NCBI RefSeq assembly: GCF_000143535.2
Contig: NC_037319.1
Coordinates: forward strand, 992,001 to 1,056,000
Direction: 5' to 3'
Source of the DNA: Botrytis cinerea B05.10
Lineage: Eukaryota; Ascomycota; Leotiomycetes; Helotiales; Sclerotiniaceae
DNA length: 64,000 nucleotides
Part shown: positions 20,723-54,850 of the stretch, piece by piece
Layout of the letters: each line of letters opens with the position of its first letter
Numbering within the stretch: the stretch's first letter is position 1
Made by a program: the position numbers and the translations under genes
Notes under the pieces: model-generated
What the model saw: the letters and a program-made list of their open reading frames with translations, nothing else
Databases searched by the model: none
What the model was told of the DNA's origin: nothing

Positions 20723-22762
20723 TCATCTGCGCCGACGACTCAAACGTTCCACGTCCACTATCTCATCAGTCAAACTTTCCAATTTCTCAATCAAACTCAT
20801 CTTATTGTTTGCCGAGCAGTGAACAATCGTATTCCACACCACGCGCCATTCCTCACGCAGAATCGCCGATACACTAGATGTAGTTATTATCGACAATGTT
20901 GCTTCGCAGTCATTTTGTCTTCCGGATATGCTGTCAAAGAATGGGTAGTCGCTTGCTTGATGGTTGTATAGCTTTTGGAATATCTCTTCGGCTTCGTCTT
21001 CGTACTCTTCTGGGATAAAATTTCCGTTGAATAATGTAGCATCGGCAGCTGCGTTTCCCCGGTGGGCAGCAACGTTGCCGTTAGTTCGCAAAGCCATGTC
21101 TGCTTCGCATCGGGAGATTTTGAGGGCTGTGTCTCGTGCTTGGTCTAGAAAACGTAGTCGTATGTCTGCTCCTATCTTCACCAGCGGTCCTACAATATCA
21201 TGTGCATCTTTCAAGTCCTGGTAGTTTTTCCGTATAGCGTCACGGCTGGAGTGCATACTCGCATATTTAGCAGTCATCTTTTGGAGGTCTCCCTCAGCAC
21301 TTTCCAATTCGTCTCGAAGTGCGTTTCGCTTCTTTTTGTAGTACTCGGCATCTTCTTTGTACTCTGCACGCTCGCTTTCATATCTATCCGCATCGTCTTG
21401 AAGCTCATTATGCTTATCTTCGAGACTGTAATGATCACTCTTGAGATTCTCGTACTTCGTTTCTAGCTGTTGCAGACGATTGGAAGTTGAGGCGATCCGG
21501 CGCTGCTCCTGTCTGATCCTATGGTTTTCAACCCTCAGACTCCTCACTTGTTGCTGAAATGTCGCACTATGTTCCTGTACTACATGAAGTTTGAGCTGGC
21601 AGGCTTTGACGTCTTGTGCTGAGCTGCTTAGCGCGATGGACATAAATTTTGCCGATACCAGTGCATCGCTCTTTTGTTCCTCCAAAGTTGAGATTCTCTC
21701 CCCAAGTCTCACCACTTCCTCGCTCATTGTCGCCAACCTCAGATCCAGCTCTCTCCTCTCAGCCCGAACTGCTGAATTTTTCTCTCGAACTTTCCGTAAA
21801 TCAGTCGATGCTTTCTGTCGTGTCGCTTCCACTTCCTCAAGATTCAATTTCATTGCGTTAATTTCCTTCCGATGTCTTTCATTTAGCTGATCCAACTGCT
21901 TTTGAATTTCAAGCCTGTGTTTTTGATTTAGAACTTCGATCTCGGCACGCAAAGAACCGGCTTGTGTCTTCGCAGACTTTAGGTCACGCTCTTGTCGGGC
22001 CAACTTCTCAATCAATTTGATGCTCGAATCTAGTTCCGCCACTGTTGAATTTGTGACGACTGTGTTTCTTGTCACTGTTTCTGAAGATAGAGAGGTGCAC
22101 ATGATGCAAGGATTCCCGACGGAAGTTGTCGACTTGATCACTTTGATATCCTCGGGGACACTTTCGCTAACGAATTGCTCGGGTGTATGACAAGATGCAT
22201 GCAGCGCGGACTCCATACTTTCAGTTTTGACGCAAGTTTTTGTCAGCTTAACAAGTGCGCGGGAGAATCCTACCTTTTGACCCAAAGCCGTGGGGTTTGT
22301 ATCTCGACGAGCTGCTACCGCTACCGCGGCTACTTGAGACTTCTCTTTCTTCAACTTGGCCTTTCTAGCAATTTCCGCTCTTTCCTTATCTTCAATCGAC
22401 TTCTTATCGATTTTCCCCCAACCCATGGGCAAAAATTCCATATCATCGTCGAGAAAACCTTCACTCTCAGACTCTGCATTCGAACCCCACCCAGCGCATT
22501 TCTCATCACAGCTTTTATATTCAATCACAGGCCCATACAACGGCCATGATTATTGTGGTTTTTCGATTTGTTGAGGATTGACCGACGAGTCTGTGATTTT
22601 GCTCTAGTGTCAGTATTTTTACATGTTTGGTTAAAGTATTGCCCTACCTTCGTCTTGCGCAGACGGCGCTCGATCTTCCGCCTCCGAGGCCGGTAGAGAC
22701 ACGGTTCCTGCTGGAAGTCGGGATACAGAAGCTGCAGTTGCTTTCTTCTTTTTGGCTGCCAT
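20723..22762 (-). CDS. Family member A: coiled coil + GNxxAH domain, possibly interrupted
   Basis: A 605-codon open frame (20723-22540) encodes an acidic N-terminus, a coiled coil of ~300 residues and the shared C-terminal domain: IGADIRLRFLDQ, then GNVAAHRGNAAADATLF, then a short C-terminal helix region ending in RRRR. Upstream, a plausible first exon starts at 22762 (MAAKKKKATAASVSR) with donor GTAGGG at 22647 and acceptor CAG ending at 22591. Joining gives DEDSSVNPQQIEKPQ, followed directly by an in-frame TAA at 22550-22552, three codons before the long frame. Either the gene is broken by one nonsense codon, or it starts internally (ATG at 22441, MEFLPMGWGKID) or uses splicing I could not resolve. 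CAA to TAA is one C-to-T change. Function unknown. Confidence 0.6.
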
Positions 22763-23776
22763 TGAAATTAAATTGACGTCTTCACCTGATTGTAAAGAAA
22801 ATCGGGTGTAGTTCGATGGTTTCTGGGATCGGGCGCGTGCCTTATGGGTGTCATATTACAAATCGGAAAATTTTGGATGAAATATTTAACGGATAGGATT
22901 GTTACAACCATTAGAAGATCGGAAGGGATGAATGACTTTGTACTCTCTGTCGAGGAAATAACTTCGCTGAAGATGAGAGGGGGGCATATCCGAGATGTTT
23001 CAAAAGTGAGTCGCCTTACTTGCATATCGGAGAACATGTAGATTGGTATCTGTCCGGAAAAAAGCAAGTCATTTGCATCATACTTCATAATAGTTTAATA
23101 CATGAGGTAAATATTCACTTCTGCAGTAATGCAATGTGGACTTGTAAAAGATTCCTTCAGATTTTGAAGGGTATGAAAGAATCGTGTATGGCTAAGAAGT
23201 AACTCAAATGATTTAGAAACGGAATTTTATCTTGACTCAAGCTAAATTTTATACGTTCAAGGTCAAACGCAGTACTCAATCTTGAAGGCACATCATTCTA
23301 TTGGGGGTTGGAGGAAGGCTGGGAAGTATGAAAAGGAGAATCTGTAAGTGAGACCTTTAGGAGACGGAAGACTATTAGCAGTTGCATGTGTAGCTGTTTC
23401 TTGGAAAATAGCATGGAGATGTTTGATGTGGAATTGGTACATTATAACATGGTATTAATTAAGAGTAGCAAGAGCTTCAGTCTAGTGAAACTAAAATTCA
23501 TATGGCTTTCATACAAACGCCAAGCAACTATCTTCTGATGAAATCTATTACGATACGTGATTTTGCTTGCAACTACAATGTGATCCTCAGTATATGTGAA
23601 TTAAAGTACTTGCGATACGTTCAAACAACTCCCGAGACATAAGTTCTTAACTCAGGTCTGTGAAAATGCAAATGCAAACTTTAGGTACATCTATTCGGAT
23701 GTTCCGAAGACAGTACCCACTCAGAACTATAAGAAAAATTAGCCGCTATTCAGTGAAGATGAGGCGTTTTCCTAGC
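22763..23776. other. Intergenic
   Basis: About 1 kb separating family members A and B. It includes the presumed promoter of A. No gene or repeat recognised. Confidence 0.5.
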
Positions 23777-26543
23777 CTAGTGGGTGCTTCTCCAGTCGCC
23801 AGTGTCTATCATGCCACCAGACTGTCCAGTACACCAATCATCAGCGCCTGCCATATCACCAGGCTCACCAATACCCCAACCACAAGCCTCAGAATGGCTT
23901 GTTTCTTCCCCATCCTATACACGTAATCAGTCTTTATTCTCAATGATTCAGGGAGTATGTACTTACGTTAAATTCCTCGGCATAACCACGATACTCCTTG
24001 CTTCCATCAATTCTTATAATCTGTTTCTCAAGATCATGTAATTGAGACAACCAGCCTGACACCTCCTCATTCGCATCGAATATATCTTCTTGGAGATTCG
24101 CGTTCCAGCATTCAATGATAGAAAAGAACAATTGCTCCGCTTCTGTGCGAAGCTCTTGAGAAGTTATACTATCATTTATGACTCGAACAGTTTTGATACT
24201 AGCATTGCTGTCTAATGCCTGGCACAACTTTAGGGGGAAGTTCATGACAGCTGCGTGCGAATTAACATGGTAGATTTTGTTGTAAATAGCTTCGTTTGTG
24301 GATCCTGATAGATAGAAAAGTTTGAAAAGAGCTGCATCGGTCAAGCAATATGCTCGGTGACAGCGATCGTTCCCCTCTTGGATGATCTTGTGATCGGGAC
24401 GACTAAATATCTCACCTAATGAGACTGCATGTTTGGCTTGCTCAAAAAACCTTTTTCTGACTGCCACTCCGATCTCAATGAGGGGTTCTACTGTAGCACG
24501 CTCCTTCTCAAGCGCTTTGACCTTTCCTTGTAGCTCTTGTATCTTGGAACTGAACCTCTTAGTCTTTGATTGCTCTTTACAAATCGCCTCTTCAAGTTCC
24601 GCGGTTTGGCGCAATTCTCCTGTTGCTGAGTTCTCTAGGAGTGTTTTCTTCGTTTCATTAAGCTTACTGATGCATCGCTTTAAGCTGTAAACTTCATCCT
24701 TGAGCTCGCTTATTGTCAACTCCAAGATACCGAATTTCTTCTGCATGACTTTCTTTTCGATATTCATTATTCGAACTCCTGGGGAACGCTTTCTGATATT
24801 CAAAGACTTCTCAAGATTTCTTATCTGTTCCTTGAGATCAAAAGTTTCTGCTTCATACAAAATGGCGGAATTTTCCATTTTCAGCAGAGACGTCAAAGTC
24901 TTTCTCTTAGCTTGTGCTACCTCATGAAGTTGATTCCAATACCATTGGCATCTTGTGCCAAGAATGGCGTTGCTCACTCGAATCTTCTTCATGACTTTGC
25001 ACAGCTTCCTTGCACCCTCTGACATATAGGGGTAAGTCGTAATGTCCCAAGATGGTTTGCCTTGCGGGGTCTTGAACACAAATTTGAGTCTGGTAGAGGA
25101 CTTCTCGTCGTCATCTTTCTCCTCTGCTCTGTTGACTTCATCCCACATCTCAGGGAAGATCTCGTAAGCTATGATATGACATTGATGACGTATTATAAAT
25201 TCCAATTCCTCTGCATGTCCAGGTACAACTTCTGGTGGTACCCGCGATTCTTCCATTACGACTTTGGATTTCAGCAAATGAAGTTCCGTCCGCAGTTGAG
25301 TCATCTCCTGGTCAAGACCTGATGACCTCTCACGCAATACCAAATTCTCTCTCCGAAGTTTCTCCAGCTCCTTGTTGCGGTCCGCCTTCAGATTTTTGTT
25401 CTCAAACTTGATCGCTTCGTGTTTTTTTGTGAGATCGGCCAAAGTTTTCTGATGCTCAGTTTTTAGATCTCTGACTGACTGCTGTCTTGAATCTTCTATC
25501 GGCATCAATCTTAGCGCTTCAAGAGCCTTTTCCAACTTGAATCTCGAAAATGTTGCATCCAGCCCCCCCGAGGGGGCGGCCCGACCCGCCCCAGAGAACG
25601 TGGTTGTGGCTACTGCTTGACTTGTACTACTCGCTTCAGCGTCCGATGGGGCCATAAGGCGATCTGGCATGAGACTGACCGGTGATACATAGTCTTTTAC
25701 TATCGGAAGGACCAAGGTTGGACTATTACTGATCTCAATTGACGTTAGAATTGCTTCTTCTGTGGCGTCTATAGTCATACTCTTCTTCTTTTTGGATTTC
25801 TTCTTGTTCTTGTTCTTCTTCTCCATCTTAGGGGGCTCATCAGGCTCTGCTGTATAAGTCGTCTTGACATACGTAGTACCCTCGACTCCGTGTGATTCAC
25901 CGTACACAATCGAAGATTCATCTGTATTGGTTGGAATTTCGTCTGAAGTTTTAGTGGGGTCAAGGCTCAGTTGGTTTTCGGAGTGCCGAGTAATAAGATG
26001 ATCTATATCTTCTGATAGACCAACGCTAGATCGAGAACCCGTAAGACTTGGAGTATCTTCCAAGATGGAGTCTTGTTTTTGATCAATTTCCGACCCTAAC
26101 GACAAAGGATCAGCTGGGCTTGCCATTGCATCTTCTGTTGAGAAGGTAGAGTCACTTGTGAGATTCTTAGGGGACATACCTGCAGTATTTGACGCTTGTG
26201 GAACACTGGAGTCTTCAGCATTTTCGAAAACCTTAGATAGCATTTCTGGTTCCGTGTTTGATTTATCGAGTGTATCAATTGCCTCAATTCCGACGCTTTC
26301 GATCGATGAAGTGATAGTTTTAGAGCAATGGAAGAAGGTCTCCAAGAGTTCCTTATTCTGAAGGATATCAAAGTCCATGCAATCGGTAAGAAGGCCATTG
26401 AACCTCCCAAGCATCGCTCCAATTGCCCAGCGCTGCGCAGGCTGTTGCCATGATAATGGATTGTTTTCCAGGTAAGCCTTTAGATCTGCGAGTCCTGTCT
26501 TGATTTCGGGTGGTACTACCATGTTGTGTATAAACTTCGACAT
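23777..26543 (-). CDS. Family member B: large coiled coil + GNDxCH domain
   Basis: Model: complement(join(23777..23914, 23967..26543)), 904 aa. The start ATG at 26543 (MSKFIHNMVVPPE) is used. A GTAAGT...TAG intron near the 3' end joins EEFN|DGEETSHSEACG in phase 0 and gives a 46-codon final exon ending DWRSTH. Residues 1-230 are acidic and disordered. A polybasic run KKNKNKKKSKKKK near 240-255 is a likely nuclear signal. A coiled coil follows at ~330-700, interrupted by a globular insert (HQCHIIAYEIFPEMWDE). The shared domain comes next: IGVAVRKRFFEQ, GNDRCHRAYCLTDAALF, YNKIYHV. This is the longest of the eight members. Function unknown; nuclear location is inference. Confidence 0.8.
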
Positions 26544-29470
26544 TGTTTCCAATGTTGTGGAGAGTGAAAAGGTTGACTGCGATTGAAATCTGTTAACTAG
26601 TTGCCGTTTTGAATTCTAGAAGCACTCTTTGAAATTTGAAACTCCTTAGGACAAATGAAAATTGTTTGTAACAAACTGTTGATAGGGCACATGGGATGAA
26701 TACTATTGCGCGTTGCTAGATTTTCCCATGGCCTTTTCGACAAGGGATCTTGAATGATTGTTGGTATACAAATTGATCGAATGGAGGATGTCGGATAAAC
26801 GTGTTGAAGTCAGATTTTTTCATAGCATTTTTTTGCGCTTGCAACGAAGATATCGAAAAAATCTTCACATAAAGCTGAGCTTCATTCAATCAAATAAAAT
26901 TTGTGCGCGCGATAAGTTATCGTTATAAAGTCACGTTCTAACTTTTCAAACACAGGAAACGCTATACTGGAGCGGCATTAAGTCTCTTTATTACTGATTT
27001 CCATCAACTTCGCATTTGAATCCAAGCACATCCAAATGGTAACTTCAACAAACATTCGTTGAGAGACAGAGACGGGGCCCAGTGGCCGTGATGTATCATT
27101 GCAGTGGTGCGCTCAAAAGTAAGATCCCCGACCTTTCGGTGGCAGATAATACATCTGTCATCTACACGGGCTATCGATATAAATTTTCAGAATGGAAACC
27201 TATCTCATGATTTACTGAGTGGCAAGTGTGTTGAGCGAATGTTTGAACTCGAAAATTGCGGTCTTCTTGCTTGACTTGCCCAACACCATTCTTCCTCCAA
27301 TAGCACACCATTTTCATTATATACCGGGCACCCATACTCCAAGCAATGATGACTTCCTTCACAGAAAAGGAGAGGCTGGAAAGTCCCAGCCTGTTCTCGT
27401 CTTGATGTGGTCGTTGCTGTCCAAGTTGCCAGATCTTCGAGATGCTTTCGTCATAGATTAGCTCACTTAGTATTCAGATAACACTCGCAAACTGAAGCAT
27501 TCATTGTTGTTATTCTGAACGTGGCGTGGCTTCGATGATGGAGATTGCGATATGAAGAGTAACGACGTACATGTACAGAAGAGGCAAGAGCGATAGAGGA
27601 GGAAAGAGAGACAGACATGCAGGAGATCCAAGGAACTGAGATAGAATGAAAATACAGGATTTTAATAACGTAAGGATTCATGATGTAATGTTTACTTTTA
27701 TTTCATTGAGCTATCATTCAAGGTTTCTTGGAACGCAATACTATGCACGATGAGACCTCTAGAAGTTTAGACGAGGAAATCTCTCGCTGTATCATATCTA
27801 CTCATAAGTAGAAAGGGGAAGAAAATACACGAAAGGAATGCAAGCATGGAAATTCCCAAAACTAAGACCTCGCACAGTGTGTCTTTTAAGATCACGTGAC
27901 AGATATAACCTTTTCGGTATCTGTTCGCAAGAGGTAAACTGCCTGTGATGGAGAACTGGATGATCAGCTTCGAGAGATAAATCATTTCCTATTCCTCAAG
28001 AAGATGAAGCACTTGATACACAGGCCAGAAGTGAATTCGCGGCTCTCCCGGGCCATGTAAACTTCGAATCACCCCTCCAAATCCCCTCCGAAAACACATT
28101 GCATGAACTCGTCATGCTGATTCTGAACCAGACGAACCGTTGGGTGGGGCTAAAGCGAAAGGTAGTCGGTAGCCGATCAATTCCCGACATGAGGTTTTCT
28201 GTAAATAAAAATAGACCTTGATACACTTCATCAATGGGATTACTGGAAGGTGTTAGGGACCCATCTCATCATCCCATTTCTGGAGATTCGAGGGTCAGGT
28301 AAGATCTAGAAGAACAGTTTCACATCCTGGCGACATACTTGGAATCAGAAATATCACTGCCAAGGCCGTTGGAAATGAGGTTTGGGATGATTGCATTTAT
28401 CGCGAATGGTTGGTCAAAATTCGAGGGGTAATTCACATCCTTTGCTTGAAGAGCCTCAAACTTGCACGTTGTCTTGAAAATTCTTGGTGGCTGCATGAGC
28501 TGAAGTTTGGCGAAATTGTAAGTCTAGAAATAGGATCCAATTAAAATGCATTGTAATCACGTGAGTTTACGCAATTCCGGGGTTTGACTGGCTCGCTAGT
28601 GCTTGCAACCCACTCCCTCATCCTTCGACTTCCAGTGATAAAGTATGGAGTAAGAACTCAAGCTCGACATCATTATACTCCGATATACCCCAATATTAGA
28701 GAAAGAAAACGCCAACGCACCACTACCGAAGCTGTGGTGGTGATTCAACCCACGTGGAATATTCTGATGCATGAAATGTGAGGCTTCGGTAATGACATGG
28801 ATGCTGGCTTGTGTGGCTTTCTGGGCATTCCTTTTCTGGCAAAAATGGGGGACGAAGTATTGCTTCTCAGTATCTTGGCTTTCCAGTAATAGGTCAGGCT
28901 TTCCTGCTCTCCTCAATGTAGGACGTTGATACACTCATATATCATTATTTAGGCAACGACGTTTAGTTAATCGACGTATGATTGGCTGAATTGGAATCAT
29001 GCGAGAGATTTGTAAAAATAGCATGAGCCGAAGTGTTTTGATATTGCATTCTTATCTCTGAAAAGAAAACATTGGGTGATTACTATGGGAAAAACTTCAA
29101 GACGGGCTAACCCTCCCGCCTTATAGTGCCTGTCATACAGGACACACATCATGGGATAAGTCAGCCTTAAGCCACCTAGAGAATCCTCCATTTCAATAGG
29201 TTTCAACCCTTGCTCTAAAGGTCTAGGCGTCCATCCATTTTTCTGTCACAAAACTTTGTATGCTGTTCCTTTTCTGGAGTTGGTGGAAGATGCTGGGAAA
29301 AGAATTGTGTGTTTCGAGGGATCTTTTCTTTATAACTCCCACTTTCCGCGTCGAATGTTCTGTGCACACGGTTGAAAGGATTTCCGTCATACCTTACTGA
29401 GGATCCTCAACTTCTCATCACAAAAACATTCATTCATCGGTGCTAGTTTGTGCCTGGGCCGTTTTACATC
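26544..29470. other. 2.9-kb spacer between divergent genes
   Basis: No convincing gene on either strand; all frames are short and lack domains. Two TCACGTGA palindromes lie at 27892-27899 and 28557-28564. The part upstream of 29471 is the presumed promoter of the HET-like gene. Confidence 0.5.
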
Positions 29471-31825
29471 ATGTCAACGTCAGTAGATATCAACCACAAC
29501 TTTGATGGACAAAGACATTGGTTTAAACAGTTTACCTACACCAATCCCACCTTGAGAGATGCAGAAAAAGCAGGCCCTCTCGATCCAGTACCCACACATT
29601 TCCACAGAGATATTTTGAATAGGGAGACATGGCGACCTCGAGATCTTCTTAGATATATCTCTCCTTCCTATGGCAAACCATATCATATGCTCGTACAAGC
29701 CGCTTCCAGTCCCGATATTCAACCACAAGGAGAATGGAGAAGACGACGTGTTGGAGGGAATGCGCCCACACTTTTGAGGGTATCCTCATGGGCCATCGGA
29801 AATGAACTCGATTCCGCTCAAAATATTGCCTTGGCTGTTGGAAGATCTATTCTTGTCCTTCCTATCATAATATTCATCGCTGTGTATGGGATTACTAATG
29901 GCGATGGAAAAAACAGTGACAAATATACCAGGTTCCCTCACAAATGCTATGAGTATCCAAAGCATGCTCTGAATCAACTAGACGCTGCTCCGAATGCAGC
30001 GCAATGGATCAAAGGGCAGCGTCAAGATGATGGGGATAAAACTTATATAACCAAGGGTGAACAAAATCGCCTTCTTCGACCTCGTGCCTTGGTTGTATTC
30101 CGTAACAACAAGTGGGAAGTTGTCGAAGATGGAAGCTTTTCCGGTCCATATATCTTCATCAGTTTTGCAGCCGCCCAATACCAAAGACCTGCCCCAACGG
30201 ACCAAAACCCGGGCAAGACTGAGTTGGATCAAGAGGCCATTGATCTAAGAGCAAGAAAACTCACGCTGCATCATGGAATGGAAGCATACTGGGCAGACTT
30301 CCATGTAAGTTTTGATATCAAATAGGTCTAATATTAACCACTGACCTTTTGTTATAGTGTAGAGCAGAACTACAACCCGAAGCCACTGACGATGTTCATC
30401 GATTCTGTGATGTCACCCGCGGGGCCGAAAAGGTCTGTGTTGTATTACCGGATCGTTCCCCTCAAGCCCTAGTGTTCTTTGGTCAACGTCTCTGGTGTCT
30501 ACCTGAAATCTTGCTTGCCCGAGATCATAAAGTTAGCGTTTGCACACCTGACTTCCAGAACAAAGACGGTGTCGATAACATAGAAGTTGTTGATATCATG
30601 GAGTTCACACATCGATCATGGGCAAGGAAACTCACACCAAGCAATGAAATCATACATGATGGGAATGACGAAATTTTCCGTCTGTTAGCCGAACATTATA
30701 CTGGTTCTCTATCGCTAAGTCGGCTTGAGCTGATTCAAGTCGCCCTTAAAGCTTTGAAATCCAGACAGTTCACGGAGTTTCAACGTGGAGATATTGCCTA
30801 TGCTCTCATGACACTTCTCACGAAACGCCCTCGTATGGATCCTTCTGATACAGAAGAGCAGGCTCTTGCCCGGCTTTCACTGGCCAATGATAGTGATCAA
30901 ATTGTCGAACGCATGGCTTGCATGGATGGCATTCGCATGACAGGTAAACCTGCGTGGTTCAATCTCGAAGATGATCTTGGTGCCAATTTATGGGACATCC
31001 AGCCTCTCTGTCAAGTAGCAGGCGTTTGCCATGACGCGTCCTTGATTCTAGATGGTGCCCATGCAATCTCTATTCGCTGGAAGGACATTCCCAGAATTTA
31101 TTCCCTCAGAAGAAGATCTTGGAAAAAGCTCGGCGCTGATTGGGCGTTGGCGTTTGGACCACTTTTATTTATTGTGGGATGCGTTTTGGTGGCTCAAGGT
31201 AGTTCAGTCGGTGGATTGGGAGCTTTCTTCTTAGTCTTGGGACTTATTATATTGCTCTCAGCACCCTTTGCTGTGCTAATTCTCTACGGCGGAAAAGTTT
31301 GTGAGTAATATTCTCCTTCTTGACTCTTTCATACTAACAATAAAATAAGGGGGTGCTACACCTTGGCTTGTCGGCTTCGAAGGAACTCTTCCACTTGATC
31401 AAATTGAGACTCTTACATTCGGTAACTCAATTGGTCGTCTTCAATACACACCGTCTAGCGGTCCATACTGCACTCGTAAAGAAAATGAGAGAATTGGTGG
31501 AGAACCTCAATTCAATGTGTCGGATCTTCCTCTTGGGCATAGATTTTTCACATTGATTGATACCGTAAGCTTTTACCATTCTTCTGGTTTATACAGATAG
31601 TCAAGCTAATCACATACATTTCAGGGCACTATGACTGTTACTGTTTTCTCCGCCGAGCGTCCTCCATCTGTAGCCCTACTCGCTGGTAAAGAAGGAGGAA
31701 TGTTACGAGCAATACTGTGCTCTTACGAAAGATCTAATAATGGATTGCGTAAAGAATGCGTACTGAGAATGGAGACCCCAATGTGGGATGCCAGCGATGC
31801 TATGGGGTGGGTCAAACTCACGTAG
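29471..31825 (+). CDS. HET-like protein with three membrane segments
   Basis: Model: join(29471..30304, 30358..31300, 31350..31564, 31625..31825), 730 aa; donors GTAAGT, GTGAGT, GTAAGC, and all joins keep frame (ADFH|CRAELQ, GKV|WGATPW, LIDT|GTMTVT). The start is ATG 29471 (MSTSVDINHN). Residues ~270-330 read GMEAYWADFHCRAEL, DVHRFCDVTRGAEKVCVVLPD, which resembles the fungal HET-domain core (AYWxDxxC.., IxxxxDVYRxAxxV.VWLG). HET proteins trigger vegetative-incompatibility cell death in filamentous fungi. A hydrophobic segment near 120-143 and two near 560-610 (LAFGPLLFIVGCVLVAQG, AFFLVLGLIILLSAPFAVLIL) suggest a membrane-anchored variant, so it may not be a canonical HET effector. The C-terminus ends in WVKLT. 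Assignment to HET is by motif resemblance only. Confidence 0.75.
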
Positions 31826-33068: not shown

Positions 33069-34540
33069 TCACAATCCAGACTTATCCGAATTCGAGTATA
33101 CGAATTCCTCAAACTCTGTCAGGAGCTCGATAGCCTTCTCATCTCCGGTTGGTAAAAGCTGGGAAAGGTATACTCCGGCGACACCATTATTAAGGTCGAT
33201 CCACTAGAGTGAGATAGTAAGCTGGAGTTCATATTCATAGGAAACTGACCTACCCAGTAGCAATTTGCATGACCCGACCAGGTAAGCGAGTTTACTCCAC
33301 GTCGTTTCGGCACCGCAGCTGTATTTATCAGACCACCAATCCCAAAGTTAACAGGGACGTCATTTGGGACGGTATTCTAGATGGCATTGCGGGTCGACAA
33401 AGAGTATTCCTCTGGCTTATCGAGGCCCCCGATATTTTCTAGATGAGGCTGGAACATCTCCTTAATAGTCTCAGGCCGCAGTAGCTTCTCTGTCAGGATG
33501 CCCTGGTATATCTTGAGCAGATCGTTCACAGTTGCAAATAATCCACCCCCTCCGAAATCATCCAAAGTATTCTCTGCATAAACTGGCTTCATCTGCTCTT
33601 TCAGGGTTTGGCCCTCTCGCTCCCAGTTTCTGGCCTTTCGAGCTTGTAGATCTTCTCGCAGTTCGGGGTGGAAGGTGGCATCCTTCGCAGAAACGACGTC
33701 AAAGATATAGCGTTTCATATACTCGCCAAGCTTCATGGAGGTAACTCGCTCGACCTTTACAGTTCGCGATGCGAATTAGTTAGATTCTGTCATGTTAGAT
33801 ATTTCCAGACTTACAGCGAGGCCAGCCCAGTCAAGGCCAGGGGAATACATCCATCGCTCACCGGGTTCGAACACAAGAAATTGGTGGGGAAACTTCTCTG
33901 CCTATAACATTCAGTAAGCTATTGTATTAAGGATTGGAGGGAGTCAACTCACGATGGATCGATTGGCGAAAGTTGGAGTTTTTTGCAACTCTTGGTAGCG
34001 AGTCAAAAGTGGATTCATGAATACATAGGCAATGCCGCTGGAGTGAGTTAACAGGTTCCTAATTTCCATCTTATGTCAGTATAATTCTTCAGCCTTGATA
34101 AAACAGGAGCATCACTTGCCGAAGGGTAACAGGCTTTGTGGAGGGCTTGAAAATAGCTTCATTCTTTTCATCAAAGCCCTTCAAGATCTGTGGATTCTTG
34201 AACTCTGGTATCACTTTTGCTATGTCGCCATTCAAGTCTAACTGTCTCTTCTAGACGCACTGCATTACAGCGATGGTAGTGATGAGCTTGGTGGCAGAGG
34301 CGAGCCAATACACAGAATCGGTGCCGTCAGGTTTGCCAACTTCATCCCCAAAAGCCTGAGTATAGTGAAATGAGCCTGGATCGCGTAGGATTAGCAAGAG
34401 CAAGCACAGAAATAATAAGAGGATTTTGCTGCTAACATACCATCCCTGTTGATGGCCCCTAGTGTAAGCTTTGGGAGTGGCCGGTTATCTTGCTCAAATC
34501 GCCGGCGAAGAGACTGGGCGCGTTTATCGAAAGAGGCCAT
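33069..34540 (-). pseudogene. Beta-lactamase-fold esterase/transferase pseudogene
   Basis: On the minus strand the exons of a serine hydrolase of the beta-lactamase superfamily (EstB/LovD-like, often annotated as a penicillin-binding or 1,4-butanediol diacrylate esterase relative) can be followed from MASFDKRAQSLRRRF at 34540 to YSNSDKSGL at 33069. The nucleophile motif is SxxK in ASATKLITT, and the tyrosine motif is YSP in RWMYSPGLDWAG. HLLTHSSG-like and LEPF-like blocks are present (NLLTHSSGIAYVF, FGGGGLFATVNDLLK). Introns look intact. Two in-frame TAG codons interrupt it: one after IAVMQCV (near 34252-34254) and one after STRNAI (33377-33379). Both could come from CAG by one C-to-T change in a CpA context. 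I leave the reading frame broken. Confidence 0.82.
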
Positions 34541-36643: not shown

Positions 36644-37943
36644 ATGTCTACTCCTGTAGATTCCAGCCATGATGCAGACCAATCTAAGACCAAACCCTAC
36701 TCGCAGATCGTGAAGGACTTGAGAAACGAAATGCACGCTATTTTCATCTGTACCAAATGCAAAACCAAAGGGAAAATAGTGGTAGTCACTGATCATACTC
36801 TACCTATGGGTGAGTCACAAGTAGGGGATTCCTGGGCTTTAATGATGATTAAGCAGAATACTCGCTTTGAGTTGCATCCCTCAGAAGCAGCGTCGGGCCT
36901 CTCAGGAACCGAGTCGGCTACAGAACTAAGGAGGCTCCTGAAGCTAGCTCTCGACGAGAACAAGGAATTGAAAGCGAATCGCGATTCTGCAGTTGTGATC
37001 ATTGAAAAAATGCAGAAAGATCACGAAAAAGAGATTTCACTGCAACTAGATAACTTCAAGGCCAATATCGAAAAGATTGAGAAACAGATACAGAGCGAAA
37101 GGCATGAAGCTAGCGAGCAATTGCGTCTAGCAGATAAAAATTATAAAACGCTATACGATAGGTCTGTCTTGCTAGACTCAAAGTATCAGAATGTTTTACG
37201 GAACTTGGAGGAAGAACAGAAGAAGAATCTTGGCCAGGTGTCTGATCACAAAGAATTGAGCAAAGAACATCAGCAACTACGGTCAAACCACGAAGCACTC
37301 CGAGATATGAGCGAGAGAATTAAGCCCCTTCTAAGTATTGGGATAGCTATGAGACTGAGGTGGCTTGAAAATATCCACTTTATGTTCGAAGGTCACAACG
37401 GCAGAACACTAGACGGACGCGTTGTGGAGTTAGGGAATGTCGCAGCTCATCACCCTGATTTCGAAGTAAGTGGAACATGTGCCAATGCTTCATTGAAGAG
37501 TCCACAATCACTAACATATGATACAGGCAGACTCCTTGCTGTTACAACACGCTGGGCTTACAGTTGAATCTATTGATAGGGTCAATGAAAGTATGCAGCG
37601 AATATACGGAAAGAGACATGTACCAACATCAGCAGACTCCTTAGTTCCACGCACTTACCCTTCTACTCTAATCTTTGTGCTGGATTGCAAGACAGCGGCT
37701 GCAATTCATCAGTCTCGCGAGTTCCTGGTGGACTATGCACACCACCAAAGGCTTCGCTTGATCTTGAAAGAAATGATGGTTATTTGGGAGCTCGTGGAAT
37801 CATACGAGAAGTTTGATAGCATCGCAAGAGTAGGGGAACTACGGAAAGAGGCGGCTCAGATCTGGGAAGCTGTTCAAATTGCATACAGGAGCAGCAAGCG
37901 GAGATTCCGACCTCCAGATTATGTGACGAATAATTCCAGGTAG
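36644..37943 (+). CDS. Family member C: coiled coil + GNVAAHH domain
   Basis: Model: join(36644..37465, 37527..37943), 412 aa. The intron (GTAAGT...ACAG, phase 0) falls inside the shared domain, immediately after HHPDFE, and joining gives ADSLLLQHAGLTVES. The N-terminus MSTPVDSSHDADQSK precedes a short globular part with a CTKCK dicysteine (ICTKCKTKGKI), then a coiled coil at ~95-235. The domain then reads IGIAMRLRWLENIHF, LGNVAAHHPDFE|ADSLLL, MQRIYGKR, followed by ~110 helical residues (IHQSREFLVDYAHHQRLRL). The C-terminus is basic (RSSKRRFRPPDY). Function unknown. The two cysteines alone do not make a zinc site. Confidence 0.82.
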
Positions 37944-42691: not shown

Positions 42692-42862
42692 ATGCCTTCC
42701 AGCAACACTCAAGTCAACCTCACCATGGTTGAGGTTAGTCCAGGTGAGTTTAGACTCATGCCAACATTCCCACACCCAACTCCAGCGACTCCTGAATATG
42801 GAAACATCCCGATCAAGCTCGATCAATCTAGCTCCAACAACACTGGTGGCAGCAGGCGCTAG
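42692..42862 (+). CDS. Possible 56-residue protein
   Basis: The ATG follows a pyrimidine-rich, A-ending leader of the style seen upstream of real starts here (TTCCTAAATC-ATG). The frame reads MPSSNTQVNLTMVEVSPGEF then a proline/threonine-rich stretch PTFPHPTPATPEYG and ends GGSRR. The first half has regular, folded-looking composition. It could be the first exon of a longer gene, but no downstream continuation was found. No family recognised. Confidence 0.3.
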   Translation: MPSSNTQVNLTMVEVSPGEFRLMPTFPHPTPATPEYGNIPIKLDQSSSNNTGGSRR

Positions 42863-44148: not shown

Positions 44149-44988
44149 ATGGACTCAAAATATTGGATAGAGAGATGTCAGCAGCTGGAAGCCCGCATAA
44201 TCGAGCAAGACCGGGAGATGAAAGACAAAACACAACAATTGGAGGATGCATATGAACATACGAAATTCGTCGAAAGCGAGAGAAAGTCTCTACGGCAAGA
44301 AATAAAGAATATGAGAATTGAAATGGAGATCCAACAAAAAAATACAAACATATTGGCTCGCATTGGCGTTGCCGTACGTGTTCGTTTTCTTGAACATGTC
44401 AAATCTCAGGTTATGGGTCTTCGCAAAAGAAATCTCAATACTAGTTTTATTCGAAGAGGAAACGACGTGGCTCATCGAGCTTATGGGGCTGTAGATGCTG
44501 CTATCTTTGCTGGAAATCATCTCACAGATCTCGAAAAGAGACAACTGGAAGGGGTTTACGGACTTATTTATGATGGCTTATGTCCTCAAAATTATGGAAG
44601 TATGCCACCACGCATGCTTCAGGGAATTAATCATCAGGGTAGTATTGTTTCACTTTACGCCTTGAACAATGGGTCAATGTCAATTCGGGATAAACAAGCC
44701 GCAGGCGACAGCATGGACTTTTTGAAGAATAAGCGCATAGAGCTAGGAGATGAGGCATTTGAGAAATACGAAGACGTTGCACGTCATTTGCAGAGGCTTG
44801 GAGAGTTCTCAGATCTTATTATCGCAAAGTCTCGACGGCAGGGTGCTTTGGCGCATGGTGCCAGCCCAGGGACACTTTCCACCAGTTATGGACCTCCTCA
44901 GACTTCACCATTTCGTCAAAATTGCCCCACTTCTCCCCATTCGCATCTTGACAAGAGTTTCAGAAAGGGACATAATCCGTTCCTTTAA
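44149..44988 (+). CDS. Family member D: shortest coiled coil + RGNDVAH domain
   Basis: Intronless, 279 aa. A coiled coil at ~8-65 (ERCQQLEARIIEQDREM, SERKSLRQEIKNMRIEM) leads directly into the shared domain: ILARIGVAVRVRFLEHVK at ~68-85, RRGNDVAHRAYGAVDAAIF at ~102-120, GVYGLIYDGL at ~135. A helical segment at ~180-225 follows, then a basic, serine/proline-rich tail ending KGHNPFL. This is the most compact member and gives the clearest view of the domain boundaries. The motif here is R-x5-H. Function unknown. Confidence 0.85.
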   Translation: MDSKYWIERCQQLEARIIEQDREMKDKTQQLEDAYEHTKFVESERKSLRQEIKNMRIEMEIQQKNTNILARIGVAVRVRFLEHVKSQVMGLRKRNLNTSFIRRGNDVAHRAYGAVDAAIFAGNHLTDLEKRQLEGVYGLIYDGLCPQNYGSMPPRMLQGINHQGSIVSLYALNNGSMSIRDKQAAGDSMDFLKNKRIELGDEAFEKYEDVARHLQRLGEFSDLIIAKSRRQGALAHGASPGTLSTSYGPPQTSPFRQNCPTSPHSHLDKSFRKGHNPFL

Positions 44989-46100: not shown

Positions 46101-47799
46101 ATGACTTCTGACCGGGAACTCAGAAGAGACCATGAGAGAGACAGGGCTAAAGTCGTTGAACTCAATAAACAAAATGAGAAGATTGAACTAGTCCAACTTG
46201 AAAATTTTTATCTCATGAAGATTAGTGCTGTAAAGATTCACAATGATAAGTACAGTAGCAAGGACAGATGGAGCAAGATGGTTATCGTTAGTTAATGGAT
46301 AGCTCTGTATGGTCTAAAGATTAATGACTTACAAATATCGTAGGATGCCTCACAGAACAGCACTCTCTTAGCGCCGGCTGAATTTACAGTCCAGGATAAA
46401 CACGGCAAAAGACGCCTGGTTAAGATTGGCCCCAAAACAAGCGCACACGATGTGAAGAAGGCTATTGATATGTATGATGCGACAAAGTACGAAGAGCAGA
46501 AAAAGAGAGAAATGACTGATTGGGAACGGAGTAAAGAGGAGTTTGGCTCTCGTTTGCGTGTAAGTTTTATTAGTATCCTTCCTCATCGTTTTATACCGAC
46601 GATCTATACAGGAAATTTTGAGGCAAAAAAATCGCATTCTAGGCTTCAGTTCGAGAGATGAATCTTTTGACGCATGTTTCAGTGATTTGGACTACATTGC
46701 CCACACAACTCCAGCGCATGTTACCTATCATACGTCGTTTCGTCAGCCGACGCCGGACTTGAAGCTCGAGAGGGAAAATTCTCGACTGTCAGATCAACTT
46801 CGTGCTACACAGCAACAGCTCGCAGAAGCCAGGGAAGAATACAGGACTCTCGAATATGAAAATTATAAACTCATCCAGGAGAATGTCGAGGTTTCTAAAT
46901 CTTTAGATTCAACGCAGAAGCTTCTGGAACAGATTGCAGAGAATAGAGACGATCATGTCAAGACAAATAGAAGATATGCTGAAGAGAACAGAAAGCTGGA
47001 ATTTGAGCTGGAATCGGCACAGGCACAATTGCAAGCACAAACACAAGCTCAGATGAAACCTCAGCCACAACCCCAGCCACGGTCATGGTGGCCATCAGCA
47101 CGCAAAGTTACCTTCGATGAAGCCAGTGAGCAGTTGCGGGAGGAAGTCAAAAGCCTGTCTAAGTCTTTGGAGAACCTGAAGAATAATAGGGAGCCACATA
47201 ATATCCTCCGAGATGTCGGAGTCGAAACTCGCCTTGAATTTCTACAACTTTCTAAGGCGCATGAATATCCTGTTATTCGCAATCACACTCATCATAGAAT
47301 TGTTTCTCGCAGTTCTACTCCAGAGATTAATATGGATCTTGGTGCTAAAAGCCCAAGTATTGATGGAAGTAGTCTATATGGAGGAAACATTCGAGCAGAT
47401 GCAGCTCTTCTGAGCATCAACTCAAGTCATCGAGTCAAGTACGAACAAACATTCAAAGACATCTACGGAGTTGCATTTGGTGAAGTTACAAAGGGCTGTT
47501 CTGACAAGTACGCTCCACAGTGTAAGATTACTGAGATAGCGAACCTAAGAGGAACAATGGCATATCTGGGATGTTTCACGAGACACACGCCTGATAAGGA
47601 CGCTGACGATAGATTTTTGGCTTTGTCGGTCTATTGTGAAAAAGAGTACGAAGATACAGATCGAAGATCAACAACAGCTCTCCAAGCAGCAAAAACGTTC
47701 AGTAGTGATCTTACAGTTGTCGAAGCTTGTAACAAGATGCGGGGAATCTGTGAATCACTCGTCGAAAGAACCAAGAGTGATAGTCGTCGCTCGAGCTAG
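46101..47799 (+). CDS. Family member E: three-exon coiled coil + GGNIRADAALL domain
   Basis: Model: join(46101..46286, 46344..46559, 46612..47799), 529 aa; donors GTTAGT and GTAAGT, both introns phase 0. Exon 1 is highly charged (RELRRDHERDRAKVVELNKQ); exon 2 is helical (YEEQKKREMTDWERSKEEF). Exon 3 has a coiled coil at ~175-285, a glutamine/proline tract (QAQLQAQTQAQMKPQPQPQP), then LRDVGVETRLEFLQ and GGNIRADAALL near 391-401, where the histidine of the usual motif is missing. The C-terminal block (FKDIYGVAFGEV, KITEIANLRGTMAYL, DDRFLALSVYCEKEYE) is shared with members F and, more weakly, H. Function unknown. Confidence 0.82.
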
Positions 47800-48937: not shown

Positions 48938-50380
48938 ATGAAGGTCCTCGAGCCCAGCACAGAGGCTTTGCTCGATGAAAATGCTAGATCCCAGTTGCTC
49001 TATGATCGCTATCACCAGCTCGCAGCTATCGATATCAGGAAGTCTCAAGGCTTAGTTTTGTACAAGCAAGAAATCGAAAAAATTGAGGTGCAAAAACCAA
49101 TCTATTACAAACGTATCAATCAGATGCGTGAGGTGAGATCGATCGCATTTACCTTACTTTCGGAATGTACTGACGCCGATCTAGAGGCTTTTCGGATCCT
49201 TGGATGATGACCAAAAAGTCTTGGGCCCAATTCAAGTCTCTCAAGGTGATATCAAAGTGACTTTGGGTACTGAAAATGATCAAAAGAACATCGACAATGC
49301 ATGGGAGGAGTATATGAAGCATGAGATCAATGGTCTTGTAGCCAAAGACGCTCATACAGCTTCTGCTGACGAAGGACAGAGGAAGGTAAGCATGAATGCA
49401 TCACTTTCAATTCACGACCTGGCACATAGAAACGAACTGATATCTGCTGTGTCATGTTACAGAAATTATTGAAGGATATAGAAATATTTCGAGGCTTCGG
49501 TTGGGCTGAAGAAAGCCACGGCAATATCTCTGCTTGTGATCCCGAATCAGCAGATTCTGCTTCTGACAAAATGGCGTCTCACAACATCAAACTCGAGAAC
49601 ACCAAAGGGAAATTGAGACACACCCAGGAAGATAACGCTTCTCTAGTCGCTGCAGAGGCTGAGAAAACTAGGGAGGTAAAAAATGCACTTGTATCTGCTC
49701 AGTCAATGCTCATCCAGGCAAACAAGAGAGTCGCACTACTAGAATTCACATTGAACAACAAAAATCACCCCATGCATGATGTTTTAACCTTTTCCTTCGC
49801 CATCAGCTTACGATTCTTCAACTTGTCGACCCGACACAATAATTTCGGTAACTTCACTCCCATTCCAGAGCGCGGGATCACAGATGTAGGGGCGATTGAT
49901 CGCGGTTCTGCTGCTGCACACAGTGGCAATGTCAGAGCTCACGCATACATGATCATCAAGGATTCTAACGGTCTCTTTAAGAACTGCGGTGAAATTTTCA
50001 AGGCTCATTATGCAGTTACACACGAGGAGGTATTCCAGAGCAAATTCGATAAGTACAGCATGGACTCTAAGAATACCGAGATCGCCAACTACAGAGGCTC
50101 TATGGTACACTGTATGTCATTCTCTAAGCTCACCCATGATTCAAACGGCGATAATCGATTCGAAACTCTCCGGAAGCAGTGCGAAGTGAAGTATCAGTCA
50201 CATCTCAAAAATTCGGCATCAGCAGCCGAGGCGCAGAAGAAGTTCGATAGCGATGGATCTGTGGGCGGAATGGTCATTGAGATGAAGAAGATATCGAAGC
50301 ATATTGCATGGCTGGAGAGAAAAAGAATAAAGGCTCAGTTTTCGGAAAGTGACAGTTATATAGATAGTGATAGTGACTAA
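48938..50380 (+). CDS. Family member F: three-exon coiled coil + RGSAAAH domain
   Basis: Model: join(48938..49132, 49185..49385, 49463..50380), 437 aa, both introns phase 0 with donors GTGAGA and GTAAGC. The start ATG at 48938 (MKVLEPSTEALLDE) is chosen over upstream frame extension because it opens a charged helix. A coiled coil at ~165-235 is followed by the shared domain: FSFAISLRFFNLST, DRGSAAAHSGNVRAHAYMI at ~278-296, FKAHYAVTHEEV. The block KNTEIANYRGSMVHCMSF and DNRFETLRKQCEVKYQ matches member E closely. The C-terminus ends in an acidic SDSD repeat (ESDSYIDSDSD). Function unknown. Confidence 0.82.
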
Positions 50381-51050: not shown

Positions 51051-52879
51051 ATGACTTTCCTCTGCTGTTCTACCAATAAGAAAGTCAAGGACACAAAATC
51101 CTCAATTCAAGAAGATATGAGAGTAAGTACCATCTCAAACTTGGCACAAAATCACAAATTTCCAATTTACCAATACTAACCTTTTTCCCAATCCAGAGAC
51201 CACTCGTCCTTCTTAGTCAAAACATTAGCCGCGCCAATCACCCTACTGAGAGACCCAGCTCTGACATAACCGACGAATCTAAGAAAGCCATATCTGCATT
51301 GATAAACCAACATGAGCAAGCAAAGACTGAACTCGAGAACCACAAATCATCCGAGTCAAGAATGAAGAATGAAGTCGAAGAGCTGCGCACACAGATCCAA
51401 GAGCTCCATGATACCGTCAAACATGACCAAGATGATCTGAGGGAATTGAACCGACTCATAGAGGGGGGCGTTCAAGAATCCTCTGCTACTTCCGATACAC
51501 AGGAAGCTCTTCTTGAAAAGCTAATCGCCAGAGAAGCTGTCATCGATCGAGAAATCTTCAATCTCCGGGACGATAAAGTCATTGCGAGAGCCGAACTATG
51601 GTTTTCCGCTGTAGGAAAAGTAGACGAGTCAATCGCGCATCCTGATCAAGCTAGCCGAGACAGGAGCCTAGCAATGCGCAAGGAAATGTACATTAGGACC
51701 AAACGTTCTATTGCTCATGAGACAAAAGCTGCGTTTATATCAGCAAAAGAGGATATCCACAAGCAGAAACTCGAAATATCGCGCGATGACAGTGTAGAAG
51801 GACATGTACCACTTGCGCCTCCTTCTCCTATCTCCATGGATAGCGATCAAATCTCATTTGTAGCAGGAAGTTCACTTGGTGATCCTTTCGTCGAGAATGC
51901 TCTACAAAACCGAGATACCTCTTGGGGTACAATCAATATCGACGGAGCAGATTCCTCCATTGTACTGAGCCAAACCTTTGATGAGGATAACCAGGCAGTT
52001 GCAGACAGTCATAGGGCAACAATTGAAGAGAATCAATCCCTCAAACTTCAAATCCAAACTACTGAGCGGAAACTCCAAGAATGGGAGGGAAATTTCGATC
52101 GCTTTAAACTCGAAACCCGAGCCACTATTGAGAGACTAGCTTCCGAGGTCTCGCTTAGTGAAGAGGCTCTTGAGGCTTATAGAAACGTTATGGAAGACGC
52201 CGATGAAGCTCGTGGGCAACTAGAACATGATCTAGCACAGATAGAAGAAGATAAAGCCCGTCTTTGTGTTATAGTTGAAGAAGTTGGTCTTCCTATATTA
52301 GCACGAAATGCAGAGAACATGAAGAGAATCAAGCGCGATGGCGTTTTTACATCACTCGGTATCAGTCATATTCCATTCAACGAACTCCTTGTGCACAACG
52401 GAAACTATGCCGCAACTGGAGGTCACATCGATGCACATTTTGCATCTATGCTTTTGTGCGAGCAGGAAGTTGTGAGTGGCCCTGTCATCAGTCACGAAAT
52501 GTTTCTCAACATTTATGGCGTTTCTGTTGGTGAATACCGTCACTTGTATAAAGTGTCGGACAGACTGGACGAGATGTTCAATATGCATGCAATGCTTGTT
52601 GAATCTGGTTCTTTTACTGAAAAGACACTCTCTGAGACTCGAGACTCTTTGTTTCAGAATTTGTTCACGCAGGGTTTGCTTCAATTCGAAACAATTGACG
52701 CACTTGACATGGCAGAGAAAGGTCGTATCTTCGATGGGCAGGATGGGGAGGACCAAATTCAAACATTCAATGAAATGTTAGATATTGTGAAGGATATCAA
52801 GCGAATGCAGAGCGATGCAAAATTGGAATCGGTTTCTGAGCAATCGATTTCGGAGCAATCGGTTTCTGATCCTGACTAA
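51051..52879 (+). CDS. Family member G: divergent coiled coil + HNGNYAATGG domain
   Basis: Model: join(51051..51122, 51197..52879), 584 aa, phase 0 intron (GTAAGT...CCAG). The 24-codon first exon MTFLCCSTNKKVKD has adjacent cysteines next to lysines, which could be palmitoylated and membrane-tethered (inference). Coiled coils lie at ~55-105 and ~265-360. The C-terminal domain is recognisable but divergent: VGLPILARNAENMKR, HNGNYAATGGHIDAHFASML near 424-443, MFLNIYGVSVGEY. The tail ends with three repeats of the type SVSEQS/ISEQS/SVSD. Function unknown. Confidence 0.82.
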
Positions 52880-53513
52880 ACCAATCTGCATATATCATGA
52901 GATCTATGTAGATTCTTTCGAACGCTGTTGAGTCTCTCGTCTAACTCTGGTTGGGGAAATAAAGCATGAAAGCTAGTACTAGCAAAATAATAATACAAGG
53001 TCATCCAGAATAATAGCAACACTTGATTACAATGCGCATATTTTCCAGAAACGTGAATGTTTCAATTGTAATAATAAGTGAATATTCTTCGAATTATCTG
53101 ATTACCTACTTGAAGCTGGGACCGCAAGGCTGTTGAACCAAGTGAGAGTGTGCCATGTCCTCCTATCCTATGTAAATGACTTTGTTTTTAACAATTAACG
53201 AAAGATCTAGAAGTAATAGGCAACGACACAGTAAAAAAAATCCAGAATTACTACAAATTTCCAGCTATTATCCAACTAAGTGATGTTTCAGCTTCTCCTT
53301 CAACTTCAAGAGGACCAGCGCCTCTTCTCTGGCTACAATGATATATACAGATACTCTCTAAAAGAATTCTCGCTTAGAATTTTTTTGGAACTATATCCCA
53401 CACGCGACTTTGTAACCAAAACAAACTTTCCTTTCCTCCCACAACAACTTCTGCTTACTTTTCATTTTCCTAAAATCTTTGATTCTCGGGATTCAGCGTG
53501 TCATTCCGCGACC
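52880..53513. other. Intergenic
   Basis: About 630 bases between members G and H; the part nearest 53514 is the presumed 5' UTR and promoter. Confidence 0.5.
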
Positions 53514-54850
53514 ATGGGCGCTCAAGTTATTCCACCAGAGACTACCAGTACCGCTCTTGTAGTGAGCAAGCCTCAAAACACAAATGGTCCTAGAGTGAAA
53601 GATCTTATTCTGATGTTTGAAAAGCTTGGAAAAGAAATCATCTATCTTTGCGAAAGGAAGCACGAGGAGAATATTCAAAGAGCTCTTCCCGAGAAGGAGA
53701 GGGCTTTCACTGATTATCTTTCATCGAAATTTTCTGTAAGTGAAAGTCATCATTTTCTTTCAAAGTTTTGCCCTATCCACTAACAGCCTTGGTTAGGAAA
53801 TTGCCGACAATGCCAATGTGAAGATTCAAGAAATGATCGCCGAACTGGGTCTCGATCTGCCACTGGAGAAACCGAGAGAGATCTCTGTTACACATATTGA
53901 TGAAAACAATCAAAAGTTCATTACCGCAGAAAGGGAGATTAATGCCATCCAGAAGGAACATTTGAGGAGGAATTTCGACGTGAGAAATGATAAAGCTCCA
54001 CGAGATAAACAAGGCTAACTTTTACAAGGAATTTAATCTTGGAGTTTCTACCATTCTTGAAATTTCCGCTATTGAGACAGCACCCTCATTCATCCAACTT
54101 GCAGAGAGCCCGGATGACACAGTCGAAATTGCGCATAGTCATGAAGAAAATTGCTCTCTCAAGAAAGCACTTGAAGACTCAAGACAAACTCTGGTCAAAT
54201 TGAAAGCTGAAAAAGAGGATGAAAATGACGTTCTCAAAAGACAAATTCAACATTACAAAGTGATCGCGAAGTCTTGTTCTCGTGTCCGTCGCGGATTCTA
54301 CAATTCTGGACGCCGTTTCTACCAAGATGGTGAATTCCATAACGTCGAAGGCCGCGCTCCAGCCCTGAGAGAGGTGAACGATCGTCGGAATGATGCATGT
54401 CATAGAGGAGACATCGCGACCGATTATGCGCTGTTCAAGGTTGATCTGGATCATACTGGTTGGAATGTCACAGGCCAGTATTATGTTGATTTTACCAATT
54501 CGTATCACGTCACACCTCACGAATGGGGAAAGATTTACTCAGTCTCCAGATCTGATCCCCACCCGGTTCTTATTGAGGTCTTGAACATGAACGCAACCTT
54601 ATATCACTGCTACTCCAACACGAAGTACAGCCATTGCAAAGCGGATGACGACCATTTCAACGAACAATTCGCAAAGCTTTTCGCTAAATTCAAGCACCTG
54701 TTGGAAAAGATAGACCATTCACAAGCGATCGACCGATACAAATACCTGGTGATTTTTATCAAGAATGCCGCGAAAGAGCGGAAGGTTATGGAGGAAATAG
54801 TTGGAAAAACTATTGCACGCGAGAGAGCTCGGAACTTCAATCGAGCCTGA
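53514..54850 (+). CDS. Family member H: three-exon, RRNDACH domain
   Basis: Model: join(53514..53735, 53797..53979, 54029..54850), 408 aa, both introns phase 0. The second intron contains a GCTAAC branch-site and ends ACAAG, joining NFD|EFNLGVSTILE. Exon 1 starts MGAQVIPPETTST and is helical from ~27. A short coiled coil at ~170-205 precedes the domain: SCSRVRRGFYNSGRRFY, then RRNDACHRGDIATDYALF at ~254-271, with R-x4-H spacing. It continues with YYVDFTNSYHVTPHEW, VLIEVLNMNATLYHCYS and DDDHFNEQFAKLFAKFKHL, which weakly parallel the extra block of E and F. Basic C-terminus. Function unknown. Confidence 0.82.

What the first reader, a model, noticed from the sequence alone, without database searches (positions are those of the whole stretch)
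20723..54850. Clustered family of eight coiled-coil proteins with one shared C-terminal domain
Eight genes (A at 20.7 kb, B 23.8, C 36.6, D 44.1, E 46.1, F 48.9, G 51.1, H 53.5) each have a variable coiled-coil N-terminus and the same order of C-terminal blocks. Block 1 is a hydrophobic/arginine helix (IGADIRLRFLDQ, IGVAVRKRFFEQ, IGIAMRLRWLEN, IGVAVRVRFLEH, VGVETRLEFLQ in E, weaker in F-H). Block 2 is GN-x-x-[AC]-H-x-[GA] followed by D-A-x-[LI]-[FL] (for example GNVAAHRGNAAADATLF, GNDRCHRAYCLTDAALF, GNDVAHRAYGAVDAAIF). Block 3 is [FI]-x-x-[IL]-Y-[GV]. Lengths run from 279 to 904 aa. I cannot assign the domain to a named family. Repeated duplication of a coiled-coil scaffold with a constant domain in a gene-poor accessory region suggests a fast-evolving, perhaps self-recognition or defence, system; that role is inference.
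Basis: partly seen in the sequence, partly recalled or inferred. Interest (0 to 1): 0.88.

Follow-up and report, generated by a model that had tools for sequence, protein, structure and literature searches.

The report
Fungal coiled-coil family, HEPN-like motif
A grey-mould fungus carries, at one place in its genome, nine related genes that share an unnamed end-domain whose most conserved spot resembles the active site of HEPN RNA-cutting enzymes; the gene family looks real and old, but its function is not known.

Summary
HMMs built without a given gene recover each of A-H from 507 window ORFs (worst E 6.2e-5, best outside ORF 0.069). No curated family covers the domain. Database hits point to Botrytis cinerea. 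Single-sequence genome searches with nine members find copies only at this locus, including a ninth 29 kb beyond the window with a split frame. 'Fast-evolving' is not supported: orthologues of A, D and E occur in many Sclerotiniaceae, and in 15 of 16 species with two or more members hit, two share a contig.

The core motif is [G/R]-N-x-x-x-H. H and the ninth copy have R-N-x3-H, the HEPN RNase signature; gene A has the R-x-x-G-N-x-A-A-H of DUF4145, a HEPN family. The evidence is motif-level only: best DUF4145 hit E 0.028, under its cut-off, and the signal falls to control level when 12 motif columns are masked. Proposed: coiled-coil-tethered HEPN-like ribonucleases, with members (E, G) lacking the histidine. 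A catch-all rival, a non-catalytic helical domain, is about as likely.

The parts
20723..22762 (-). Gene A: coiled coil plus shared domain; block 1 21140-21175, motif LRTNGNVAAH (GNVAAH at 21062-21079), block 3 20963-20980
   Evidence: ORF; a 660-aa annotated B. cinerea protein maps to 22762-20726; leave-one-out E 1.2e-12; motif
23940..26552 (-). Gene B: long protein with a lysine-rich stretch; block 1 24438-24473, GNDRCH 24357-24374, block 3 24267-24284
   Evidence: leave-one-out E 1.4e-25
36644..37943 (+). Gene C: two exons read here, intron 37466-37526 just after motif GNVAAH (37433-37450), exon 2 from 37527 (ADSLLLQ), block 3 37593-37610
   Evidence: leave-one-out E 6.2e-5 for exon 1
44149..44988 (+). 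Gene D: shortest member; block 1 44362-44397, RRGNDVAH (GNDVAH 44458-44475), block 3 44557-44574
   Evidence: leave-one-out E 1.1e-16; 13 database hits
46101..47799 (+). Gene E: block 1 47215-47247, degenerate motif region DGSSLYGGN 47362-47388 (no histidine), block 3 47452-47469
   Evidence: leave-one-out E 1.2e-6
49454..50380 (+). Gene F (ORF; any upstream exons not resolved): weak block 1 49790-49822, RGSAAAH (GSAAAH 49904-49921), block 3 49997-50014
   Evidence: leave-one-out E 1.9e-17; genome search with E finds it, E 6.0e-16
51299..52879 (+). Gene G (ORF): weak block 1 52274-52309, GNYAAT 52400-52417 (no histidine), block 3 52502-52519
   Evidence: leave-one-out E 1.3e-5
53514..54850 (+). 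Gene H: three mapped stretches (53514-53735, 53797-53988, 54023-54847); R-N-x3-H motif RNDACH 54386-54403, block 3 54491-54508
   Evidence: 408-aa annotated B. cinerea protein mapped; leave-one-out E 1.2e-11

Best explanation
The locus is an old tandem family, found only in Sclerotiniaceae and Rutstroemia as far as searched, of proteins with coiled coils and one C-terminal helical domain. I propose that the domain is a divergent HEPN-like RNA-binding or RNA-cutting domain. The coiled coil would bring two or more domains together, because HEPN active sites are usually formed between paired domains (recalled). The motif histidine, helped by the nearby R and N, would cleave RNA without metal, as described for HEPN enzymes. 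E and G, which lack the histidine, would act as non-catalytic partners or RNA binders. Shown here: family, motif, conservation, single locus within search reach. Inferred: fold, RNase activity, oligomer, role.
For: Shared domain. The motif is the best-conserved part: over 48 rows the nearly invariant columns are G, H, D and Y. The histidine is kept in 44 of 48 rows (14/14 D, 23/23 A, 1/1 B, 1/1 F, 2/2 H, 3/6 E, 0/1 G); 11 of the 52 database hits were left out of these rows, 9 of them E, and in the E alignment only 3 of 11 keep it. H and its orthologue read RNDACH and the ninth copy RNIACH: R-x4-H with N after R, the HEPN signature in PMC3710099 section 6. DUF4145, a HEPN family in that paper, is the only Pfam family hit by more than one of 15 domain sequences (2 of 15, best 0.028), on the motif. 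A DUF4145 HMM made from 30 loci ranks gene A first of 507 window ORFs (E 0.056); the fungal HMM's top four of 849 bacterial ORFs are DUF4145 proteins, hit on the motif (best E 0.018; three are near-copies). hhalign score 27.9 against at most 13.2 in 100 column shuffles. AUC 0.893 against at most 0.798 in 30 shuffles. Crude propensities give mostly helix in block 1, after the motif and in block 3, with some strand calls.
Against: No HEPN match reaches a curated cut-off: DUF4145 14.8 bits against 23.1. With 12 motif columns masked the AUC falls to 0.615, inside the shuffled range 0.541-0.798, so only the motif supports the link. In the DUF4145-against-window search an unrelated ORF is second (0.087), and D, E, G and C rank 28th, 39th, 21st and 64th. 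DUF4145 has 38-48 residues between its first-helix acid and the motif (30 of 30), the fungal domain 21-22 in 37 of 47 rows and 27-38 in 10. The strict R-x4-6-H holds in 4 of 9 B. cinerea members (D, F, H, I); A has R-x7-H, B and C lack a near R, E and G lack the H. PDB sequence search gave nothing meaningful (best 0.36, a designed protein). NCBIfam gave five single-member hits, one of them Cas13e (0.076; a HEPN nuclease, recalled) but two unrelated ones were better (0.022, 0.031). PHROGs gave ten single-member hits, best 0.0029 to an unnamed family; PADLOC none. No fold could be predicted.
Confidence: 0.36

Rival explanations
1. A lineage-specific, non-catalytic helical domain that ends coiled-coil scaffold proteins (a catch-all rival). 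The GNxxAH and DAxLF parts are structural (helix cap and packing), and the proteins assemble into homo- or hetero-oligomers.
For: Sub-threshold matches to coiled-coil families in several members, clearest in A, E and G. The histidine is absent in E and G while the rest is kept. No curated enzyme family matched. Similarity to HEPN limited to the motif.
Against: 37 of 37 A and D rows keep the N and H of the motif, and H and I have the exact R-N-x3-H, which packing alone does not explain.
Confidence: 0.42
2. A fast-evolving self-recognition or incompatibility system, with variable N-termini as recognition parts.
For: Clustered paralogues with unlike N-termini. Two 2EXR genes lie among them.
Against: Orthologues are stable and usually on a shared contig. 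N-termini are about as conserved as the domain in D and E (A is less so). No HET or NACHT hit in A-H or in the four ORFs scanned between them.
Confidence: 0.08
3. A true DUF4145 domain acquired from bacteria by horizontal transfer.
For: Motif R-x-x-G-N-x-A-A-H shared by A and DUF4145.
Against: Below the Pfam cut-off, no similarity above controls outside the motif, shorter helix-to-motif spacing. Weak scores alone do not exclude it: E. coli HsdR also falls below that cut-off (19.9 bits).
Confidence: 0.06

Closest known systems
HEPN superfamily RNases (PMC3710099; sections 6 and 9 and 12 of 32 search passages read)
   Same: R-N-x3-H motif in H and I; a conserved motif histidine in most rows examined (44 of 48); members with and without it side by side; lineage-specific expansion in a eukaryote, as that paper describes for Daphnia, Oikopleura and Caenorhabditis
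   Different: Most members have G instead of R before N; Ex3[KR] acid not recognised; fold not tested; no HEPN profile passes a cut-off
DUF4145 (PF13643)
   Same: R-x-x-G-N-x-A-A-H in gene A; in some bacterial copies (L070) also an acid seven residues after the H
   Different: 38-48 residues between first-helix acid and motif against 21-22 in most fungal rows; no similarity above controls with the motif masked
Lineage-restricted coiled-coil gene families of fungi (general kind, recalled)
   Same: Unnamed, clustered, taxonomically restricted, coiled coils
   Different: A constant C-terminal domain with an enzyme-like conserved motif, and a shared contig in many species

Membership tests
HEPN superfamily | R-x4-6-H motif with a polar residue after R | tested here: inconclusive
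   4 of 9 B. cinerea members have R-x4-6-H (D, F, H, I), 2 of them with N after R (H, I); A has R-x7-H; B and C lack a near R; E and G lack H
HEPN superfamily | Four-helix fold of 100-120 residues | not testable with these tools
HEPN superfamily | Conserved acid in Ex3[KR] (many, not all, families) | tested here: inconclusive
   Looked at block 1 by eye only: FLEHVK or FLDQAR, an acid with two residues between it and K/R
HEPN superfamily | Significant profile match to a HEPN family | tested here: inconclusive
   DUF4145 E 0.028 to 0.1; reciprocal HMMs best 0.056 and 0.018; motif-only
HEPN superfamily | Metal-independent RNase activity | not testable with these tools
   Needs protein
DUF4145 (PF13643) | Score above the Pfam gathering cut-off (23.1 bits) | tested here: not met
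   Best 14.8 bits
DUF4145 (PF13643) | Spacing between the first-helix acid and the GN..AH motif | tested here: not met
   38-48 residues in 30 of 30 bacterial copies; 21-22 in 37 of 47 fungal rows, 27-38 in the other 10 (assumes the two acids correspond)
Fungal heterokaryon-incompatibility genes | HET, NACHT or similar named domain | tested here: not met
   No such Pfam hit in A-H or in the four cluster ORFs scanned
One shared domain family (the finding itself) | Each member recovered by an HMM built without it | tested here: met
   8 of 8, E 6.2e-5 or better

The most novel reading that the evidence does not exclude
A previously undescribed eukaryotic HEPN family: nine tandem, coiled-coil-assembled fungal ribonucleases and pseudo-ribonucleases, kept at one locus throughout Sclerotiniaceae, acting as an RNA-level immune or growth-arrest system against mycoviruses or other selfish RNA.
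Probability: 0.13. Interest if true: 0.78.

Novelty: new variant of a known kind. Interest (0 to 1): 0.42.

Why it matters
The family has no Pfam name and has been kept at one locus for long in a group of plant-pathogenic fungi. If the domain is HEPN-like, it adds a coiled-coil-tethered branch to a superfamily of RNases used in conflict systems and RNA processing, and gives a concrete histidine to test. If it is not, it is still a clear unnamed domain that a single solved or predicted structure would place.

Tried and rejected
Pfam, NCBIfam, PADLOC and PHROGs scans gave coiled-coil noise, single weak hits or nothing. PDB by sequence gave nothing meaningful. Literature listings showed no paper that by title or abstract start concerns this family: DUF4145+HEPN (4 papers), HEPN+fungal+heterokaryon incompatibility (1), HEPN with RNase, fungi, domain and coiled-coil (4), Botrytis cinerea+HEPN (12, of which 8 listed), Sclerotiniaceae+lineage-specific gene+coiled-coil (0), HEPN+fungal genomes+ribonuclease (0). 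A guess at gene identifiers gave seven papers, none opened. Only PMC3710099 was opened. The reading as a plain DUF4145 member was set low on cut-off, spacing and masking.
Full report
What the window is. The window is bases 992001-1056000 of contig 10 in an 18-contig, 42.6 Mb genome. Database proteins named Botrytis cinerea are 97-99% identical to members A, D and E (one further E hit of that name is 90%), so it is that species or very near it. Conserved genes flank the cluster: a Gtr1/RagA GTPase and a Myb_DNA-bind_7 protein on the left, an AAA ATPase at 58-61 kb on the right.

The observation. All eight genes are present. Pfam and NCBIfam give only matches under the curated cut-offs, largely to coiled-coil families. 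The domain is shared by all eight: an HMM built without a given member and its orthologues recovers it from 507 window ORFs in 8 of 8 cases, the weakest being C (E 6.2e-5, exon 1 alone; exon 2 alone only 4.2), while the best ORF outside the family over all runs reaches 0.069. The two subgroups, A-D and E-I, find each other in part (F 3.2e-5, H 1.5e-4, B 1.9e-5, A 1.3e-4; but G 0.13, E 4.6 and D 0.14). Profile comparisons agree (A-E and D-E alignments include coiled coil); E-H is weak (0.023). Gene C has a 61-base intron just after its motif.

Copies in the genome. Each of nine members was used as query on the whole genome (at E 0.01; at E 1; at E 10). All hits below E 1 lie on contig 10 between 1.0127 and 1.0855 Mb; one hit elsewhere (contig 9) has E 1.84. 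These searches are insensitive: D finds only A and B of its seven sisters, E only F, so distant copies elsewhere may be missed. The ninth copy lies at 1084990-1085460 (-), 29 kb beyond the window, best match H (E 4.3e-10). Its domain reads in two frames, so it may be a broken gene; it was not mended.

Age and spread. D gave 13 hits, in Botrytis/Botryotinia, Sclerotinia, Ciborinia and Stromatinia. A gave 23 hits, adding Monilinia and Rutstroemia, and two proteins without a name. An alignment of E-H gave 16 hits, 14 E and two H, with only the 8000 best candidates scored. Examples: Stromatinia cepivora A 000418, D 000425, E 000426; Ciborinia camelliae 005596, 005602, 005603; Botrytis fragariae A 005449, D 005445, H 005442. 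In a tree of 49 rows A (23), D (14), E (6) and H (2) are each one clade (several long branches, so the deeper order is unsure; 11 of 52 database hits were left out, 9 of them E). So the duplications are older than these species and the locus looks stable. N-termini are about as conserved as the domain core among orthologues of D and E and less in A. This argues against rapid turnover.

The motif. Over 48 rows the nearly invariant columns are G, H, D and Y. The histidine is kept in 44 of 48 rows and the asparagine four residues before it in 41 of 48; N is missing in E and F, H in G and half of the E rows. In the fuller E alignment only 3 of 11 rows keep the histidine, none of the six Botrytis/Botryotinia rows. 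H and its orthologue read RNDACH and the ninth copy RNIACH. The HEPN review gives R-x4-6-H, with N, D or H after the R, as the RNase signature, and lists DUF4145 as a HEPN family (PMC3710099: sections 6 and 9 and search passages read).

Testing HEPN. Scans of 15 domain sequences gave DUF4145 as the only Pfam family hit by more than one (2 of 15, best E 0.028; on residues 39-55 of the A piece); with 15 sequences tried this is not significant alone. I took 30 of 36 listed DUF4145 hits from a search of 299 genomes, 32 with hits. hhalign of the fungal profile against them gives score 27.9, E 3.1e-4 over 20 columns, against at most 13.2 in 100 column shuffles and 8.5 reversed. Reciprocal HMM searches put gene A first of 507 window ORFs (E 0.056; an unrelated ORF second, 0.087; H, B and F at ranks 5, 6 and 10, G, D, E and C at 21, 28, 39 and 64) and four DUF4145 proteins first of 849 bacterial ORFs (E 0.018 to 0.13; three are near-copies; the hits lie on the motif). 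With 19 non-redundant DUF4145 against 305 background pieces the AUC is 0.893, against 0.541-0.798 in 30 column shuffles and 0.648 reversed, but 0.615 with 12 motif columns masked. So the resemblance is above controls at the motif and not elsewhere. Spacing differs too: 38-48 residues between first-helix acid and motif in 30 of 30 DUF4145 copies, 21-22 in 37 of 47 fungal rows and 27-38 in 10. The fungal domain is therefore not a plain DUF4145 member.

Mechanism. The coiled coils would pair the domains; the motif histidine, with N and R, would cut RNA; E and G would be regulatory or binding partners. Only the family, motif and conservation are shown. I put the HEPN-like reading at 0.36 and a catch-all non-catalytic helical domain at 0.42, so the question is open; I lead with the first because it is the most probable specific mechanism, makes a direct testable claim, and explains the exact motif in H and the ninth copy.

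Noticed in passing
G000:C10:1084990-1085460 (locus L017), outside the window: Ninth family member with the R-N-x3-H motif; its domain is split between two reading frames, so it may be broken.
   Followed up: partly
38378-39520 and 40589-41332 (+): Two 2EXR-family genes (PF20150) inside the cluster.
   Followed up: no
29450-31308 (+): Two neighbouring ORFs with apparent membrane stretches (by eye) and no Pfam match, between B and C.
   Followed up: no
33377-33775 (-): ORF that by eye resembles part of a serine-hydrolase (beta-lactamase-like) protein; not scanned.
   Followed up: no
47362-47388: In E the motif histidine is absent here and in the other Botrytis/Botryotinia rows, but present in Monilinia vaccinii-corymbosi, Ciborinia and Sclerotinia nivalis, suggesting decay of the motif.
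   Followed up: partly
5273-5866 (-): ORF with a DUF7730 match just over its cut-off (27.5 against 27 bits).
   Followed up: no
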